From NCBI GenBank assembly GCA_029258695.1, contig JARIBR010000032.1, positions 1 to 12,575 on the forward strand: 12,575 bases of DNA, given 5' to 3'. Under the pieces are notes generated by a model. The model was given only the letters and a program-made list of their open reading frames with translations, was not told the origin of the DNA and made no database searches. This document shows positions 1,344-8,715 of this stretch, piece by piece. Source of the DNA: Quadrisphaera sp. (GTDB lineage: Bacteria > Actinomycetota > Actinomycetes > Actinomycetales > Quadrisphaeraceae). Both the position numbers and the translations under genes were made by a program. Positions within the stretch are counted from its first letter, which is position 1; each line of letters opens with the position of its first letter.

Positions 1344-2207
1344 TCACCCGCCGCTCCCGCTCTCCATGGACGCGACGTGACCCTTCCCGGCCATGTCCGT
1401 CATGCCGTCCATCTCCGTCATGCCTGGCCCCGTCGGCTCCCCGGCCGGCCCGAAGGCCATCGCCAGGAGCATGAACGCCATCGACGCGCTCATGAGGGTC
1501 AGCGTCACCCGCAAGGACCTGCCGTGCCAGGCCGATCCGGCCCGCTGGTGCGTGCGCGCCCGGCCTGCGGCCTGCGCCGGCTCGGCGTCCGGCGTCCCTG
1601 CGGAGGGCTGCGTCGCCTCCCGCCCGCGGGCCGTGCTCGATCCGGGGCTCGTCCCGGTACCGCTCAGCGCGGGGACGGCCTCGCCGCCGCCTGCCACCGG
1701 GAGCTCGAGGTGCAGGTCGTGCTCGGACGCGCGCACGAGCCACCCGCTCGCCCAGCCGAGGGTCTCGAGGACGAACCACGCACCGATCACCGCGTGGACG
1801 CCGGCGGGCCCCATGCTCATCGACCCGGCGGCCATGGCGCCCGTCGCCTCGCCGAGCGGCGCCATGGTGACGAACATCCAGACCATCGCCGCCATGTCGA
1901 GCGCGAGCAGCGGCCACACCAGGGTCCACCGCCCGCGCCTCGCGCGGTCCACGACGCCCCAGGACAGGGCGGCCACCGCCGCCAGGGCGAAGACCACGCG
2001 GCCGATCACGCCGGACGGCGGCTCCAGGAGCAGGCCCGAGGGCCAGAACATGGCGATCATCCCGAGGGCCATGGTGACGTGGCCGAGGTGCCACCACCGG
2101 GTGACGTCCGGCAGGCGCACGAGGTGGCGCACGTGCACCAGCGCGACGACGGCCAGAGCCACGACCCAGGCCCAGCCGAGCCACGGGGGGAGCCAGCCGT
2201 TGGTCAT
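1344..2207 (-). CDS. DUF5134-like polytopic membrane protein with a Met/His-rich tail
   Basis: This is a 287-residue integral membrane protein of unknown function. Hydrophobic segments lie roughly at 12-28, 42-60, 66-86, 94-116 and 134-158. A low-complexity hydrophilic stretch (about 170-225) follows, then one more hydrophobic helix (about 232-252), giving about six membrane segments. Its N-terminal layout (a short tryptophan-rich start, then His-containing helices with [11 protein letters not shown]) resembles actinobacterial DUF5134 proteins. I make that match from memory at moderate confidence. The last 30 residues are rich in Met with one His ([20 protein letters not shown]), and Met/His pairs recur in the membrane core ([15 protein letters not shown]). 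Such spacing is common in copper-handling membrane proteins, but metal binding here is inference. The ATG at 2207 is favoured by GGAGG seven bases upstream. It is divergent from cysE, with a 70-base gap. Confidence 0.75.
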
Positions 2208-2263
2208 CCGTGCCTCCACGTGGTGTGCCCGCTCCGCCCCCGGGGGCAGGGGCGGCCCCACGG

Positions 2264-2277
2264 TAGCGTCGGGAACC
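2264..2277 (+). promoter_or_regulatory. -10 box of cysE, apparently leaderless
   Basis: TAGCGT at 2264-2269 matches TAnnnT and lies eight bases before the GTG at 2278, while no Shine-Dalgarno sequence precedes that GTG. In actinomycetes this arrangement usually means transcription begins at or next to the start codon. No good -35 box is visible; the expected position is all G and C. Confidence 0.45.
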
Positions 2278-3270
2278 GTGCCGAACCAGGGACGGGCGCC
2301 CGATCGCCCGAGCGGACCAGCGCCCGGGACCCACGTCGACGCCGGGGCAGGGCTGGGGGAGCCCGGGGGTGGCGCGCCCCCCCTCGACCCCTCGCTGGTC
2401 GCGACCCTCGCCGCGGAGCGCGCGGCGCTCGCCCTCCCCCGCGAGCTGCCGCAGCGCGCCGAGCAGGTCATCCACGCCTCGCTCGCCCTCCTCTTCCCCC
2501 ACTACGGCGGGAAGGACCCCCGGGCGAGCGAGCGCGAGGTCGCCGACGACGCGGCCGCGCTGCACGCGCTCCTGGTGCGCACGCTCACCGGCACCGTCGA
2601 CGAGGCCGCGGCGAAGGACCTCGCCGACGCCCAGCTCGCGGCCCTGCCCGCGGTGCGCGCGGCGCTGCTGCTCGACGCCGGCGCCACCGCCGAGGGGGAC
2701 CCCGCGGCCTCCGGGGTCGACGAGGTGATCCTGTGCTACCCCGGCTTCTTCGCCACCGCCGTGCACCGCCTCGCGCACCAGCTGCACGTGCGCGGCGCCC
2801 CGCTGGTGGCGCGGCTGCTCGGTGAGCTGGCGCACCGCGCCACCGGCATCGACATCCACCCCGGGGCGCACGTCGGCCGGTCCTTCGCGATCGACCACGG
2901 CACCGGCGTCGTCGTGGGCTCGACGGCCGTGGTCGGCGACCGGGGGCGGCTCTCCCAGGGGGTCACGCTCGGGGCCACGCGCGTGGCCAAGCACCTCGCC
3001 ACGAGCAAGCGCCACCCCACCCTGGGTGACGACGTCGTCGTCTACGCCGGGGCCACCATCCTCGGCGGCACCACCGTCATCGGCGCGGGCAGCCGCATCG
3101 GCGGCAACGTGTGGCTCACGCGCAGCGTCCCGCCCGGCTCGCTGGTCTCCACGAGCGCCGGTATCGACCGCCTGCGCCCCCGCGCCGACGGGGGCCTCGG
3201 CGACGGTGACGAGGTACTCCCGGTGGGTGACGGGGATGACGGGGAGCCCGCTCTGGAGTTCCACATCTGA
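2278..3270 (+). CDS. cysE: Serine O-acetyltransferase (EpsC/CysE type)
   Basis: It acetylates L-serine with acetyl-CoA to give O-acetylserine, the committed step of cysteine synthesis in the cytoplasm. The protein has 330 residues from the GTG at 2278. An alpha-helical N-terminal domain (about 38-185) is followed by a left-handed beta-helix of hexapeptide repeats (about 188-295). Family motifs are [11 protein letters not shown] (158-167), [11 protein letters not shown] (190-200), the catalytic pair DH in FAIDHGTG (206-207; Asp157-His158 in the E. coli enzyme), and RHP in KRHPTLGDD (His246, matching E. coli His193). The N-terminal part is long, as in the EpsC branch. The C-terminal tail is acidic and Gly-rich and ends in EFHI. 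A C-terminal Ile is the residue that E. coli and plant CysE insert into CysK. The start is uncertain: no ATG or GTG follows before the conserved domain, and the frame is open upstream. It forms an operon with cysK, 44 bases downstream. Confidence 0.9.
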
Positions 3271-3314: not shown

Positions 3315-4232
3315 ATGAAGGCCGACAGCATCCTCGACACCATCGGTGGCACGCCGCACGTGCGGCTCTCGCGCCTGTTCGGGGACCGCGTCGAGGTGTG
3401 GATGAAGCTCGAGCGCGCGAACCCCGGCGGCTCCATCAAGGACCGCGTGGCGCTGGCGATGATCACCGACGCCGAGGAGCGTGGCGAGCTCTCCGCCGGC
3501 TCCACGATCGTGGAGCCGACGTCGGGCAACACCGGGATCGGGCTCGCGATGGTCGCCGCGGTGAAGGGCTACGACCTGCTGCTGGTGATGCCCGAGTCGA
3601 TGACCGTCGAGCGCCGACGGGTCCTGTCCGCCTACGGGGCGCGGTTCGAGCTGACGCCGAAGGCCGAGGGGATGAAGGGCGCCATCGCGCGCGCGGGCGA
3701 GGTCGTCGCCGCGACGCCGGGAGCGTGGATGCCGGGCCAGTTCGACAACCCGGCCAACGTGGAGGTCCACCGGCGCACCTCGGCGCAGGAGGTCCTCGCG
3801 GACTTCCCCGAGGGGATCGACGTCCTCATCACCGGCGTGGGCACCGGCGGGCACGTCACCGGGGTCTCCGAGGTGCTCAAGGAGCGGTACCCCGCGATGA
3901 GGACGTACGCGGTGGAGCCCGCCAAGTCACCGGTCATCGGCGGCGGGGAACCGGCGCCCCACCGGCTGCAGGGGATCGGGGCGGGGTTCGTGCCCGCCAA
4001 CCTGCACACCGCCACCCTCGACGGGACGATCTCCGTCTCCGAGGAGGACGCCTACGCCATGACGGTGGAGGTGGCGCGGACCGAGGGGATCTTCGTGGGG
4101 CCGTCGTCGGGGGCCTCGCTGGCCGCCGTCGCCCAGAAGCTGCCGGATCTGCCCGACGGGACCCGGGTCCTCACCTACTGCTACGACACCGGGGAGCGCT
4201 ACCTCTCCGTGGAGGGCCTCTTCGAGGCCTGA
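3315..4232 (+). CDS. cysK: Cysteine synthase A (O-acetylserine sulfhydrylase)
   Basis: This PLP enzyme converts O-acetylserine plus sulfide to cysteine and acetate, using the product of the gene just upstream. At 305 residues it has the normal family length. It carries the PLP lysine in NPGGSIKDR (Lys42), the substrate loop TSGNTG (69-74), the phosphate-binding [10 protein letters not shown] (174-183) and the PLP-ring-binding PSSGAS (263-268). MKGAI at 120-124 is typical of true CysK rather than cystathionine beta-synthase. There is no C-terminal CBS or regulatory domain. GGAGG lies four bases before the ATG. The gene sits 44 bases after cysE on the same strand, so co-transcription is likely, and the C-terminal Ile of CysE suggests the pair can form the cysteine synthase complex. 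It ends facing hisC across a repeat-rich gap. Confidence 0.96.
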
Positions 4233-4265
4233 CCCGCGCGCCCGCCAACCCGCCCGCCCGCACTC

Positions 4266-4295
4266 CCTCACTCCCCCACCCCTCACTCCCCCACC
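4266..4295. repeat. Perfect tandem duplication of a 15-base C-rich unit
   Basis: CCTCACTCCCCCACC occurs at 4266-4280 and again at 4281-4295 without a mismatch. A partial copy (CACTCCCTCACTC) begins just upstream at 4261. The minus strand is correspondingly made of G-runs of three to five separated by T or AGTGA, which fits the pattern of a potential G-quadruplex. It is non-coding and lies between the convergent cysK and hisC genes. Confidence 0.85.
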
Positions 4296-4300
4296 CCACG

Positions 4301-4404
4301 GCACTTGGTCGACCAAGTGCGGTGGAGGGTGCGTGGCCGCGCGCACTTGGTCGACGAAGTGCGGGAATCGGGGCCCCGCTCACCGCACTTCGTCGACGAA
4401 GTGC
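4301..4404. repeat. Three 20-base palindromes at an exact 42-base period
   Basis: Copy 1 (4301-4320) is GCACTTGGTCGACCAAGTGC, a perfect palindrome. If one G/G mismatch is allowed, its stem extends to 4296-4325 through CCAC/GTGG. Copy 2 (4343-4362) has the left arm of copy 1 and the right arm of copy 3, leaving one mismatched pair. Copy 3 (4385-4404) is GCACTTCGTCGACGAAGTGC, perfect and extendable to 24 bases (4383-4406). Both spacers are 22 bases and unrelated in sequence. The array fills the gap between convergent cysK and hisC. It could serve as a set of bidirectional terminator hairpins (there is no T-tract), as protein-binding sites on one DNA face, or as a REP-like element. The sequence shows the structure but does not settle its role. 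Confidence 0.9.
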
Positions 4405-4423
4405 GGGCGGGGCGGGGCGGGTG

Positions 4424-5515
4424 TCAGGGGGCCCAGGTGGCGGCGAGCTCGAGGAAGCGGTCGTTGGCCTCCACCTCGCCGATGCTGACCCGCACGCCCT
4501 CGCCGGCGAAGGGGCGGACGCTGAGCCCGACGCGCCCCGCGGCCTCCACGAACGCCGCGGTCCGCTCCGCCAGCGGGAGCCACACGAAGTTGGCCTGCGC
4601 GTCGGGCAGGTCCCAGCCCTGCTCGGCGAGGGCTGCGACGACGCGGTCGCGCTCCACCACGAGGGCGTCGACCCGCCCCAGCAGCTCGTCGCGCGCCGCG
4701 AGGGACGCCGTGGCAGCCAGCTGCGCGATGCTCGAGACGCCGAACGGCACCGAGGCGGTGCGCACCACGCGGGCCACCTCGGGGTGGGCGACCGCGAGAC
4801 CGACGCGGAGGCCGGCGAGCCCGTACGCCTTGGAGAACGTGCGGAGCACCACGACGTTGCCACGCTCGCGCCATGCCGCCAGGCCGTCGGCCGCGGACGG
4901 GTCTCGCACGAACTCCACGTAGGCCTCGTCCACGACGACGAGGACGTCGGAGGGCACCGCGTCCAGCAGGCGGTCCAGCTCGGCGGCGCTCACCACCGGT
5001 CCGGTGGGGTTGTTGGGCGTGCACACCAGCACCACGCGGGTCCGCTCGGTGACCGCCGCGATCATCGCGTCGACGTCGTGGCGCCCGTCGGGGCCCAGCG
5101 GCACGGGGACGGGAACGCCCCCGGCGACGGTCACCGTGATCGGGTAGGCCTCGAAGGAGCGCCACGCGTGGACCACCTCGTCGCCGGCCTCGCAGGCCGC
5201 CGACACCACGTGCCCGAGCACCGCGACGGAGCCCGTGCCCAGCACGAGGCACTCGGGCGGCACGTCCAGCGCGGTGGCCAGCGCCGCCACGAGGTCGGCT
5301 GCGGCGGCGTCCGGGTAGCGGTTGAGCTCCGCGGCGGCATCGGCCACCACCTCGAGCACCCCCGGCAGGGGCGGGTAGGGGTTCTCGTTGGAGGAGAGCT
5401 TGTAGGGCGTGACGCCCGCCGGGACGGGCGCCCTCGCTCCCGGGACGTAGCCGGGCAGGTCGGTCAGCGCCGCCCGCATGCGTGGCTGGGGGCCGGTGGA
5501 GGGAGGGGCGCTCAT
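4424..5515 (-). CDS. hisC: Histidinol-phosphate / aromatic amino acid aminotransferase (HisC/Pat family)
   Basis: This is a fold-type I PLP aminotransferase of 363 residues. The family members either convert imidazole-acetol phosphate to histidinol phosphate or transaminate aromatic amino acids. Visible motifs are KLSSNENPYPP (39-49), the Asn-containing CTPNNPTGP (165-173), DEAYVEF (196-202), the PLP lysine in FSKAYGLAGLRVG (Lys229, with Arg237), and the C-terminal carboxylate-binding Arg in VRVSIG (about 345-350). The gene stands alone: no other his gene is nearby and the neighbours concern cysteine and lipids. That fits the second HisC copy (Pat or HisC2) that actinomycetes often carry besides the his-operon copy, so the physiological substrate may be phenylalanine or tyrosine. 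The ATG at 5515 has no Shine-Dalgarno sequence but lies six bases after a TAGCCT -10 box. Confidence 0.9.
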   Translation of the reverse strand: MSAPPSTGPQPRMRAALTDLPGYVPGARAPVPAGVTPYKLSSNENPYPPLPGVLEVVADAAAELNRYPDAAAADLVAALATALDVPPECLVLGTGSVAVLGHVVSAACEAGDEVVHAWRSFEAYPITVTVAGGVPVPVPLGPDGRHDVDAMIAAVTERTRVVLVCTPNNPTGPVVSAAELDRLLDAVPSDVLVVVDEAYVEFVRDPSAADGLAAWRERGNVVVLRTFSKAYGLAGLRVGLAVAHPEVARVVRTASVPFGVSSIAQLAATASLAARDELLGRVDALVVERDRVVAALAEQGWDLPDAQANFVWLPLAERTAAFVEAAGRVGLSVRPFAGEGVRVSIGEVEANDRFLELAATWAP

Positions 5516-6853: not shown

Positions 6854-8356
6854 TCACGAGGATGACCTGGACGGACGCCCCGCCGTGCCCGGGTCCGCCG
6901 AGGCGTCGAGGTCGAGCCCGGTCCGGACGAGCCGGAAGCGGCTGACCGTCGTCGTCTCGTCCATCGCCAGGAACGGTTCGAGCGCGGCTCTCGTGTCGAC
7001 CAGGGACGGGTCGTCGCTCGCGTCGACGAGGGCGCCGGTCCTGGCATAGCTGTCCGCGTCGTGCGGCTCCCCGTCCGGCACCGCCCGCACCGTCGTCCAG
7101 CCGGGGAGGTCGGGGTTCTGCGCACCGTCGAGCGCGGGCACCGGGTCGCCGTCGTGCTCCAGCGAGAGCACCGTGACGTCACCGGGCGGGGTCTGCGTGG
7201 CCGTCGGCGAGCCGGCCGTGACCACCGCCCGCGGCGTGGACATCGCCCTCACCCGGGGGTCGGCCGCGAGCTGCACCGCGCTGAGACCACCCTGGCTGAA
7301 GCCGACGAAGGCCACCTCGTCGCCGGGGAGCACGCCGGCCTGACGCATGGCCTCGATCGTCCCGTCGGTCACCGCCGTGCTCCGGCCGGCGACGGCGAGC
7401 AGGTTGGTGTCCATGTCCGCTGGGTTCGAGCCGCCGCCGTCCACGCCCGCCTGCGTGGCCGGCAGGAAGACGACGACCCTCCCCGGCTCCCCCGGAGCTC
7501 CCGGCGTGCGCGCGACGTCCACCGCCGCCGGGATCCCCGACGCGGCGACCCGCAGGCGGCCGGCGCCCGCGACGAGGGCGCCCACGCCGGCCACCGGCTC
7601 GGCACCCCGGCGCGGCGCTCCCTCCGGACGGGCGATCGCCGTCGTGGGCTGGCCGTAGAGACCGCTGGCGGCGAGCCCTGCCGCCAGCGGTGCGGACGGC
7701 ACCACCGACAGCACGCCGTGGACGCCGAGGTCGGCCACCTCGTCCTGGTACGGGCCCACGGCGTCCCAGGCCGCGGCCACGGCTGCCGCCACGGCCGCCG
7801 ATGCCTCGTCCCTGAGCCCCTCCTCGACGGCGTCGCCGAGGGCGGCCGCGCCGGCGTCGGTGACGCCACGGCTGCGCGCCCACACCTGCGTGAGCTCGCC
7901 GGCCACCGACGTCCCGACCCATCCAGCGCCGACGAGCGCCCCCACCGGCACGGCGGCCGGCAGCACGAGCCCCTGGAGGACCGCACGACCCAGAGCCGCC
8001 TTGAGCACCTCGCCGGCAGCGGCCGTCTGCGCGTCCCACGCCCGGTACGCCCCCACCGCCCCGGTGACCGCGCCGGCCGTCGCGGCCAGACCACCCCCCA
8101 GCGCCGTCAGGTCGTGGACGCACCGCGAGAGGCGGCCCAGCACGTCGGCGGCGCCGCGCGGGTCCAGCGCCGCGCTGAGCAGCAGCTCCGGCGAGGCCGC
8201 GACGCGGGCCACCGAGGCGCCGGCGCCGGAGGCGGCCACGGCGCCACGGCCGAGCCCGGCTGCCAGCGCGTCGAGGGCCTCGAGGTCAGCCGTGGTCCCG
8301 TGCGAGCCACCCGTGACGTGCAGGCTGTCGACCGCGGGGCTCGGTGCCGCTCTCAC
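6854..8356 (-). CDS. Two-part protein: helical Ala-rich N-terminal half and C-terminal serine alpha/beta hydrolase (possible type VII secretion substrate)
   Basis: This is a 500-residue protein of unproven function. Residues 1-290 are Ala/Gly-rich and mostly helical, with a hydrophobic stretch at about 126-152. From about 292 on it looks like an alpha/beta hydrolase: strand RVVVFLPATQ, a NPADMDTN loop (311-318), the nucleophile elbow GFSQGG (Ser354), the acid in EHDGDPVP (Asp402 or Asp404), and the histidine in EPHDADSYA (His432, in an H-x4-Y context). The triad order Ser-Asp-His is correct. No signal peptide is visible. A NP-x-D-x-TN loop before GxSxG and an EH-D-VP acid recur in uncharacterised actinobacterial proteins encoded beside WXG100-like genes, by my recollection. 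The small gene immediately upstream overlaps it and is WXG100-like. GTG at 8356 gives a GTGA-type overlap with GGGAG six bases upstream; GTG at 8359 is the alternative. No secretion apparatus is in the window. Confidence 0.75.
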   Translation of the reverse strand: MRAAPSPAVDSLHVTGGSHGTTADLEALDALAAGLGRGAVAASGAGASVARVAASPELLLSAALDPRGAADVLGRLSRCVHDLTALGGGLAATAGAVTGAVGAYRAWDAQTAAAGEVLKAALGRAVLQGLVLPAAVPVGALVGAGWVGTSVAGELTQVWARSRGVTDAGAAALGDAVEEGLRDEASAAVAAAVAAAWDAVGPYQDEVADLGVHGVLSVVPSAPLAAGLAASGLYGQPTTAIARPEGAPRRGAEPVAGVGALVAGAGRLRVAASGIPAAVDVARTPGAPGEPGRVVVFLPATQAGVDGGGSNPADMDTNLLAVAGRSTAVTDGTIEAMRQAGVLPGDEVAFVGFSQGGLSAVQLAADPRVRAMSTPRAVVTAGSPTATQTPPGDVTVLSLEHDGDPVPALDGAQNPDLPGWTTVRAVPDGEPHDADSYARTGALVDASDDPSLVDTRAALEPFLAMDETTTVSRFRLVRTGLDLDASADPGTAGRPSRSSS

Positions 8357-8715
8357 CACCTGCTCCCGACCGCGCCGGGCCCGAGGCCCTCCACGGCGAC
8401 GCGCAGGACGCCGGACCCGCCACCCAGCAGGTGCTCCGCCCCGACGCCGCTCGCCGCGACCGCCGCCCGCAGCGCCGCCACCGCCGCGTCGGCCGACGCG
8501 GCGTGGGCCCGCAGAGCGGCCGCCGCGTCATCGAGCTCGACCAGGACCTCGGCCGCCGCGGCGACGCGCTCGTCCACGGTCGCCCGGCACACGGTCGCGG
8601 CCGGCCCGACCCAGTCCGTGGTCCGCAGCGCCCTCAGGGCCCTGACGTCGGCCTCGACGCCGCTCGCCACGGCGTCGATCCGCGCCGCCAGCCCCCGTAC
8701 CGCCGTCCCGTCCAC
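8353..8715 (-). CDS. WXG100-like small helical protein
   Basis: The 120-residue protein consists of two long Ala-rich amphipathic helices (about 4-32 and 38-88) joined at DWVGPAA, where W35-V-G37 sits at the turn. This is the hallmark of WXG100/ESAT-6-type proteins, which form dimers and travel with partner substrates through type VII secretion systems. A less conserved tail with a Gly-rich stretch (98-103) follows. It overlaps the downstream hydrolase gene, implying coupled translation and a 1:1 partner. The GTG start at 8715 has a weak GAGAGG upstream at a slightly long distance. The similarity is structural and motif-based, and many short coiled helical proteins could look alike, so the family call is moderate. 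One Cys (C43) lies just after the turn. Confidence 0.65.
   Translation of the reverse strand: MDGTAVRGLAARIDAVASGVEADVRALRALRTTDWVGPAATVCRATVDERVAAAAEVLVELDDAAAALRAHAASADAAVAALRAAVAASGVGAEHLLGGGSGVLRVAVEGLGPGAVGSRW

What the first reader, a model, noticed from the sequence alone, without database searches (positions are those of the whole stretch)
4296..4406. Three palindromes phased at exactly 42 bases between cysK and hisC
Three near-identical 20-base palindromes with a GTCGAC core start at 4301, 4343 and 4385. Their spacers are equal in length (22 bases) but unrelated in sequence. Forty-two bases is about four turns of B-DNA, so all three would face the same side of the helix, which is unexpected for simple terminator hairpins. 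Copy 2 combines the left arm of copy 1 and the right arm of copy 3, so it looks like a recombination or conversion product or a decaying copy. Conserved palindromes with diverged spacers suggest selection on the palindromes and on their spacing. Candidate roles are a binding array for a dimeric DNA-binding protein, a stacked bidirectional terminator, or a REP-like mobile palindrome.
Basis: partly seen in the sequence, partly recalled or inferred. Interest (0 to 1): 0.7.

Follow-up and report, generated by a model that had tools for sequence, protein, structure and literature searches.

The report
Palindromes locked 42 bases apart
Just after gene ends, bacteria related to this sample carry groups of short mirror-image DNA words spaced almost exactly four helix turns apart, perhaps docking sites for a still unknown protein.

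Summary
The three palindromes are real (4301, 4343, 4385; period 42) and not chance. No genome is held for the window, but its relatives (13-genome family of Pseudokineococcus) share the architecture. A pair pattern allowing 27-57 bp hit 9 of 13 family genomes (169 pairs, reversed control 0); in the order, only 2 further genomes of 396. Listed pairs are 41 or 42 apart, except one 43 and one 45. In fetched DNA of four relatives, 55 of 55 exact-arm elements have a partner at 41/42. A second, unrelated palindrome class keeps the same ruler (28 of 28 spacings). In orthologous arrays spacers fall to 7/21 identity but stay at 41/42. Arrays favour convergent gene ends (18 of 274 gaps versus 23 of 1435 others). 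No REP transposase (0 of 15), no T-tract in the window, no RNA-strand bias in stem mismatches. Best reading (0.4): phased binding arrays for an unidentified dimeric protein, acting as a two-way barrier at gene ends. Protein and effect are inferred. Stacked hairpin terminators remain the main rival.

The parts
4301..4320 (.). palindrome copy 1, class A, GCACTTGGTCGACCAAGTGC
4321..4342 (.). spacer 1, 22 bases
   Evidence: the length is the conserved feature in relatives
4343..4362 (.). palindrome copy 2, left half as copy 1, right half as copy 3
4363..4384 (.). spacer 2, 22 bases, 41% identical to spacer 1
4385..4404 (.). palindrome copy 3, GCACTTCGTCGACGAAGTGC
4233..4300 (+). C-rich, G-poor leader from the cysK stop to the array (69% C, 12% G); resembles a Rho-loading (rut) site, inferred
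   Evidence: in relatives 55.6% C / 22.5% G at 72 stops before class A arrays versus 43.7 / 35.7 at 902 stops without
4405..4423 (-). C-rich leader from the hisC stop to the array on the other strand (79% C, 16% G)
3315..4232 (+). cysK-like PLP enzyme (PALP), ends into the array
4424..5515 (-). hisC-like aminotransferase, convergent, ends into the array

Best explanation
The element is one member of a family-wide set of phased palindrome arrays placed just after gene ends. Each palindrome is a duplex-DNA site for a dimeric protein; neighbouring dimers touch, or belong to one higher oligomer, and this fixes the centre-to-centre distance at 41-42 bp (four B-DNA turns) so that all sites face one side. 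The resulting nucleoprotein block would act on both convergent transcription units as a barrier: it halts RNA polymerase coming from either side, with release helped by Rho on the C-rich leaders, and so stops read-through into the opposing gene. Shown by computation: the ruler, its conservation in orthologous arrays, the lack of single class A copies in the DNA examined, two palindrome classes with one ruler, the 3'-end location. Inferred: the protein, its oligomerisation, the barrier effect and the part of Rho.
For: Ruler: pair pattern with 27-57 bp allowed, 169 pairs in 9 of 13 genomes, reversed control 0; the rows listed are 41 or 42, plus one G426 locus at 45. Relaxed scan of G422 stretches and the window: 33 of 33 spacings at 41 (24) or 42 (9). 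Arm-agnostic inverted-repeat scan: where a peak exists (G420, G422, G423, G424) it is at 41/42 and its doubles. Class B: 28 of 28 spacings 41/42 and 11 of 11 pairs, in 4 of 396 genomes, with 27-57 allowed. Pairs: 55 of 55 class A elements. Spacers diverge, length does not: 5 orthologous arrays, 8 spacers, identity 7/21 to 18/21, 41<->42 switches in 5 of 8, none outside. A/T at spacer position 4 in 67 of 70 edges (35 arrays of G422/G423, background 17%), without left-right pairing of flanks: a sign of duplex readout. In tandem gaps G.T versus A.C mismatches in the sense strand 3:6 (class A) and 21:18 (class B); element orientation 16:14. Class A hairpins are weak as RNA (-5 to -13 kcal/mol). 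Location: convergent gaps 18 of 274 versus 23 of 1435 others; in tandem gaps 13 of 18 arrays start 13-31 bp after the upstream stop.
Against: No binding protein was identified, and two unrelated palindrome classes would need two proteins or one with two specificities. The A/T rule is 97% at inner and 77% at outer edges of G422/G423, 82% and 62% in G424/G425/G418, and absent in G419/G420 (11% at inner edges); the window's spacers keep it at 1 of 4 edges. Stem position 6 covaries left-right in G422, G423 and G424, which a hairpin would also explain, and a class B hairpin is stable as RNA (-19 kcal/mol). Class B has singles: 7 outside and 7 inside called genes. At some orthologous gaps other genomes show, by eye, a long hairpin instead, as expected if arrays are a kind of terminator. 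Five of 41 intergenic arrays lie in gaps called divergent. In G417, G419, G420 and G425 spacers within an array are 75-83% alike, so tandem duplication makes part of the regularity. The strand tests rest on small numbers.
Confidence: 0.4

Rival explanations
1. Stacked bidirectional terminator: each palindrome is transcribed into a hairpin that stops or trims RNA from both genes; the regular spacing is a by-product of tandem duplication or of RNA polymerase geometry.
For: In tandem gaps 13 of 18 arrays follow the stop by 13-31 bp, and arrays favour convergent gaps. At orthologous gaps G425 (site C) and G423/G425 (site F) have, by eye, long hairpins where G422 has an array. The window gap folds far better than shuffles on both strands (z -6.56 and -5.39). 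Position 6 covaries. A class B hairpin is stable.
Against: No T-tract in the window gap. Class A hairpins are weak, and a half-swapped G420 copy loses most of its stem (-5.0 kcal/mol). No excess of G.T over A.C in the transcript strand. Single hairpins should suffice, yet single class A copies were not found in four relatives. A 41-42 ruler kept across unrelated spacers and two palindrome classes is unexplained.
Confidence: 0.25
2. REP/BIME-like dispersed repeat: oriented imperfect palindromes spread as doublets by a transposase or gene conversion, function secondary.
For: Genome-specific cores with an internal asymmetry shared by dispersed loci; intergenic 3' location as reported for REPs (PMC3733652, passages); doublets dominate, as in REPINs (PMC3116915, passages).
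Against: No Y1 transposase in any of 15 genomes, while 5 of 14 control genomes rang. Adjacent copies are direct 26, inverted 13, against 93% inverted REP doublets in the REPIN paper. Spacers of different loci are little alike (32-52% identity, random letters 30%). One G422 array as query found only weak short matches among plasmids and phages; viral contigs gave one class A pair at 27 bp and no class B pair.
Confidence: 0.2
3. Topological insulator: arrays attract gyrase between convergent genes to remove positive supercoils, as considered for E. coli BIME-2.
For: Convergent enrichment; gyrase cleavage sites are over-represented in BIME-2 (PMC6379681, passages).
Against: The gyrase motif spans about 130 bp with 10.75-bp periodic GC, whereas a two-copy array is about 62 bp; in the flank profiles of classes A and B I saw by eye no shared periodic pattern, but ran no periodicity test.
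Confidence: 0.1

Closest known systems
REP / BIME / REPIN extragenic palindromes (E. coli, Pseudomonas, Stenotrophomonas, Xanthomonas)
   Same: Short imperfect extragenic palindromes, clustered, 3' of genes and between convergent genes (passages).
   Different: No Y1 transposase found; direct neighbours outnumber inverted ones; strict 41-42 bp ruler across two unrelated palindrome classes; no lone class A copies in four relatives; spacers little alike between loci.
Haemophilus uptake-signal dyads that form terminator stems (core AAGTGCGGT; PMC5217627, passages)
   Same: The class A half-site is AAGTGCG, and dyads lie at gene ends; the window holds the full 9-mer at 4315 and 4382.
   Different: Half-sites are not enriched outside arrays in 7 of 7 relatives tested; a fixed 42-bp pairing is not mentioned in the passages seen.
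Paired operators with helical phasing (for example NrdR boxes; recalled, no call)
   Same: Two palindromic sites at a fixed number of helix turns, bound by an oligomer.
   Different: Those are promoter operators; these are gene-end arrays of 2-10 copies at many unrelated genes.
Protein roadblocks of transcription (PMC10310618, passages)
   Same: A DNA-bound protein can stop RNA polymerase and lead to its release.
   Different: No dedicated gene-end array with a ruler appears in the passages seen.

Membership tests
REP/BIME/REPIN | associated RAYT (Y1_Tnp) transposase in the genome | tested here: not met
   PF01797 0 of 15 genomes; 5 of 14 control genomes positive
REP/BIME/REPIN | adjacent copies mostly inverted or alternating | tested here: not met
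   26 direct, 13 inverted among copies with a readable orientation in G422/G423/G425
REP/BIME/REPIN | extragenic, mostly 3' of genes | tested here: met
   41 of 42 arrays outside called genes, convergent enrichment
REP/BIME/REPIN | GTAG or CGTC tag beside the palindrome | not tested
   not scanned
Intrinsic (Rho-independent) terminator | hairpin followed by a T-tract | tested here: not met
   0 found in window 4200-4460; relatives not scanned
Intrinsic (Rho-independent) terminator | RNA 3' ends at the stem | not testable with these tools
   no RNA data
CRISPR array | one or few loci with many direct repeats | tested here: not met
   26 dispersed class A arrays of 2-3 copies in 20 G422 stretches
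CRISPR array | adjacent cas genes | not tested
   no cas search was run
DNA uptake signal | lone half-sites enriched genome-wide | tested here: not met
   AAGTGCG outside arrays near expectation in 7 of 7 genomes
Phased operator array for a dimeric protein | fixed helical distance between sites that come in pairs or more | tested here: met
   class A; class B, though class B also has 14 singles
Phased operator array for a dimeric protein | identified binding protein | not testable with these tools
   no binding data; no candidate sought by homology
Rfam RNA family | match at gathering score | tested here: not met
   0 matches in the window

The most novel reading that the evidence does not exclude
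This actinobacterial family uses an unreported gene-end device: two separate families of palindromes, different in sequence but with one 41-42 bp ruler, are bound by related oligomerising DNA-binding proteins that form phased nucleoprotein blocks after stop codons and can stand in for hairpin terminators between convergent genes.
Probability: 0.3. Interest if true: 0.8.

Novelty: new variant of a known kind. Interest (0 to 1): 0.62.

Why it matters
A distance held to within one base pair across unrelated spacers and two unrelated palindromes is a rare and directly testable sign of a protein ruler at gene ends. It would bear on how high-GC actinobacteria keep convergent transcription units apart where no T-tract terminator is seen, and could give a portable two-way insulator if the protein is found.

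Tried and rejected
Own-genome search: impossible, no genome held. Exact window palindrome elsewhere: 0 of 25 genomes, 0 of 394, 0 viral contigs; so I moved to arm-only patterns. A perfect-palindrome scan was too strict and a six-base-arm scan too noisy. REP transposase: 0 of 15. DNA uptake signal: rejected by half-site counts. Mobile carriage: one G422 array as query gave only weak short hits in plasmids (11 records) and phages (37 records), best E about 1 in the rows shown; viral contigs gave one class A pair with a 27-bp period, not read further, and no class B pair. Conserved array at the window's own gap: none of 12 family hisC loci showed a paired array within 300 bp downstream; in most of them the neighbour is not cysK. 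G417 has the convergent pair with the aligned gene ends 35 bp apart and no array. Literature: nine searches listed no paper that by title or abstract treats such arrays; sequence strings of both classes gave one unrelated paper. The library lacks most subscription papers, and only listings were seen except for the passages named in the report.

Limits of the counts: the 20 G422 stretches were chosen around listed pairs, and parts of G420, G418 and G424 too. define arrays by lags of 41/42 (36 and 44 also by a few other lags), so the spacing claim rests. print only part of the pairs. Off-ruler results: G452 one pair at 43, G426 one at 45; single arm-agnostic lags of 30, 52, 54, 71 and 89 in relatives, each once. 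Gene calls come from my own codon model. Long hairpins were recognised by eye, not folded; site G is not a comparable gap and was not used.

Full report
Observation. The window holds three 20-base palindromes at 4301, 4343 and 4385, period exactly 42, between the stops of convergent cysK (3315-4232, +) and hisC (4424-5515, -). None of 200 shuffles gave three matches. The window is itself a 12,575-base contig (P0001), with no genome held. G418 is probably Quadrisphaera sp. DSM 44207, judged from an equal contig length (243,559); G001 is the genome of L008, Pseudokineococcus marinus.

The exact word is private, the architecture is not. The exact palindrome was found in 0 of 25 and 0 of 394 genomes (the second with any base at the two S positions). 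Allowing three mismatches, 13 of 13 family genomes had hits (238 forward against 66 for the reversed control), and many listed ones came in runs 41 or 42 apart, some 82-83. A pair pattern with only the arms fixed (GCACT-N10-AGTGC twice, start-to-start 27 to 57) hit 9 of 13 family genomes: G424 57, G422 43, G423 39, G425 14, G420 7, G417 4, G418 3, G416 1, G426 1; control 0. Four family genomes had none (G001, G419, G421, G427). In 396 genomes of the order 11 had a pair: those nine plus G279 (42) and G452 (42, 42, 43); the G426 pair is at 45, every other listed pair at 41 or 42. In a class sample of 296, only G279.

The ruler. A relaxed scan of the window and 20 stretches of G422 gave 33 successive spacings: 24 at 41, 9 at 42. 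A scan for inverted repeats of any sequence peaked at 41/42 and their doubles in G420, G422, G423 and G424, with GCACT arms; G418 had one pair at 42, G425 and G426 none. In 79 loci from outside the family (263 gaps, 98 kb) one palindromic repeat pair turned up, at 79; in relatives a few single lags off the ruler occur too (30, 52, 54, 71, 89). Exact-arm elements in fetched DNA: 55 of 55 in G418+G420+G423+G424, and 55 of 56 in G422, have a partner at 41/42; G425's 200 kb held no such element.

A second class. A lag scan of gaps revealed an unrelated 24-base palindrome, CCGCRRCCGRGCGCYCGGYYGCGG, also at 42. A relaxed scan found 28 spacings, 26 at 42 and 2 at 41. This class does have singles: 7 outside and 7 inside called genes. 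The pair pattern with 27-57 allowed hit 4 of 396 genomes (G423 3, G424 1, G426 2, G427 5 pairs), all 41/42, control 0. At one orthologous gene end G422 has a class A pair and G424 a class B pair at 42.

Selection on length. Five arrays lie at orthologous gene ends in G422 and G423. Their eight comparable spacers are 7/21 to 18/21 identical, palindromes 14-20 of 20; five of the eight differ by one base (41 versus 42), none leaves that range. Against a pure selection reading: in G417, G419, G420 and G425 spacers within an array are 75-83% alike, so tandem duplication contributes.

Duplex or RNA. In G422/G423 the fourth spacer base from a palindrome edge is A or T in 67 of 70 edges (first spacer of 35 arrays, background 17%); left and right flanks do not pair beyond chance, so the symmetric unit ends at about 22 bp. 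G424/G425/G418 show it at 82% of inner edges, G419/G420 do not, and the window shows it at 1 of 4. In tandem gaps, stem mismatches in the sense strand are G.T 3 versus A.C 6 (class A) and 21 versus 18 (class B), and element orientation relative to transcription is 16 versus 14: no mark of RNA-strand selection, with small numbers. Elements carry an internal asymmetry (G422 position 7 agrees in 7% against 48% for shuffled halves); position 6 does covary in G422, G423 and G424. Adjacent copies are direct 26, inverted 13; 12 of the 13 are in one arrangement and 11 of those 12 are at 41. Folded alone as RNA, class A words give -5 to -13 kcal/mol and a class B word -19.

Location. With my own gene calls in six genomes, arrays of both classes lie in 18 of 274 convergent, 18 of 1158 tandem and 5 of 277 divergent gaps, 1 within a called gene; convergent versus the rest odds ratio 4.3, p=1.7e-5. 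In tandem gaps 13 of 18 start 13-31 bp after the upstream stop; the others at 51, 56, 97, 103 and 245. Leaders from stop to array are C-rich and G-poor compared with stops lacking an array. At orthologous gaps of other genomes I saw by eye a long hairpin instead (site C in G425, site F in G423 and G425) or one class B palindrome (site D in G425); at site H a large hairpin precedes the array in G422 and G420. At the window's own gap, G417 has the convergent pair with the aligned ends 35 bp apart and no array.

Interpretation. The position argues for a role in ending or insulating transcription; the exact distance, the pairing of sites and the lack of strand marks argue that duplex DNA, not RNA, is read. 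I therefore prefer a phased protein array acting as a two-way barrier (0.4), with hairpin stacks (0.25), REP-like spread (0.2) and gyrase sites (0.1) as rivals. REP membership fails on transposase and orientation. The resemblance of the half-site to the Haemophilus uptake word AAGTGCGGT (passages of PMC5217627) was tested; there is no genome-wide enrichment.

Papers seen: passages of PMC3116915, PMC12306157, PMC2817692, PMC3733652, PMC6379681, PMC5217627 and PMC10310618; others only as search listings.

Noticed in passing
G426:C1 18661, 120077, 183953 (within loci L238-L247): Three class B arrays (7, 3 and 3 copies) lie in gaps that my gene calls mark divergent, against the gene-end rule.
   Followed up: no
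G422/G423/G425 class A arrays: Inverted neighbours are in one arrangement in 12 of 13 cases and then 41 apart in 11 of 12, as if an off-centre contact point set the distance.
   Followed up: partly
orthologous gaps C, D, F, I: Long hairpins (by eye) or class B palindromes stand where G422 has class A arrays, so these gene-end elements seem exchangeable.
   Followed up: partly
window 4265-4294: Two copies of a 15-base C-rich repeat (CCCTCACTCCCCCAC) lie in the leader before the array.
   Followed up: no
window 1344-2471 (-) and 1393-3270 (+): A DUF5134 ORF overlaps a long ORF whose C-terminal part weakly matches hexapeptide repeats (cysE-like, name recalled); its true start is probably well inside the ORF.
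   Followed up: no
window 6854-8359 and 8353-8715 (-): An ORF without a Pfam match beside a small ORF that looks WXG100-like (recalled, not tested).
   Followed up: no
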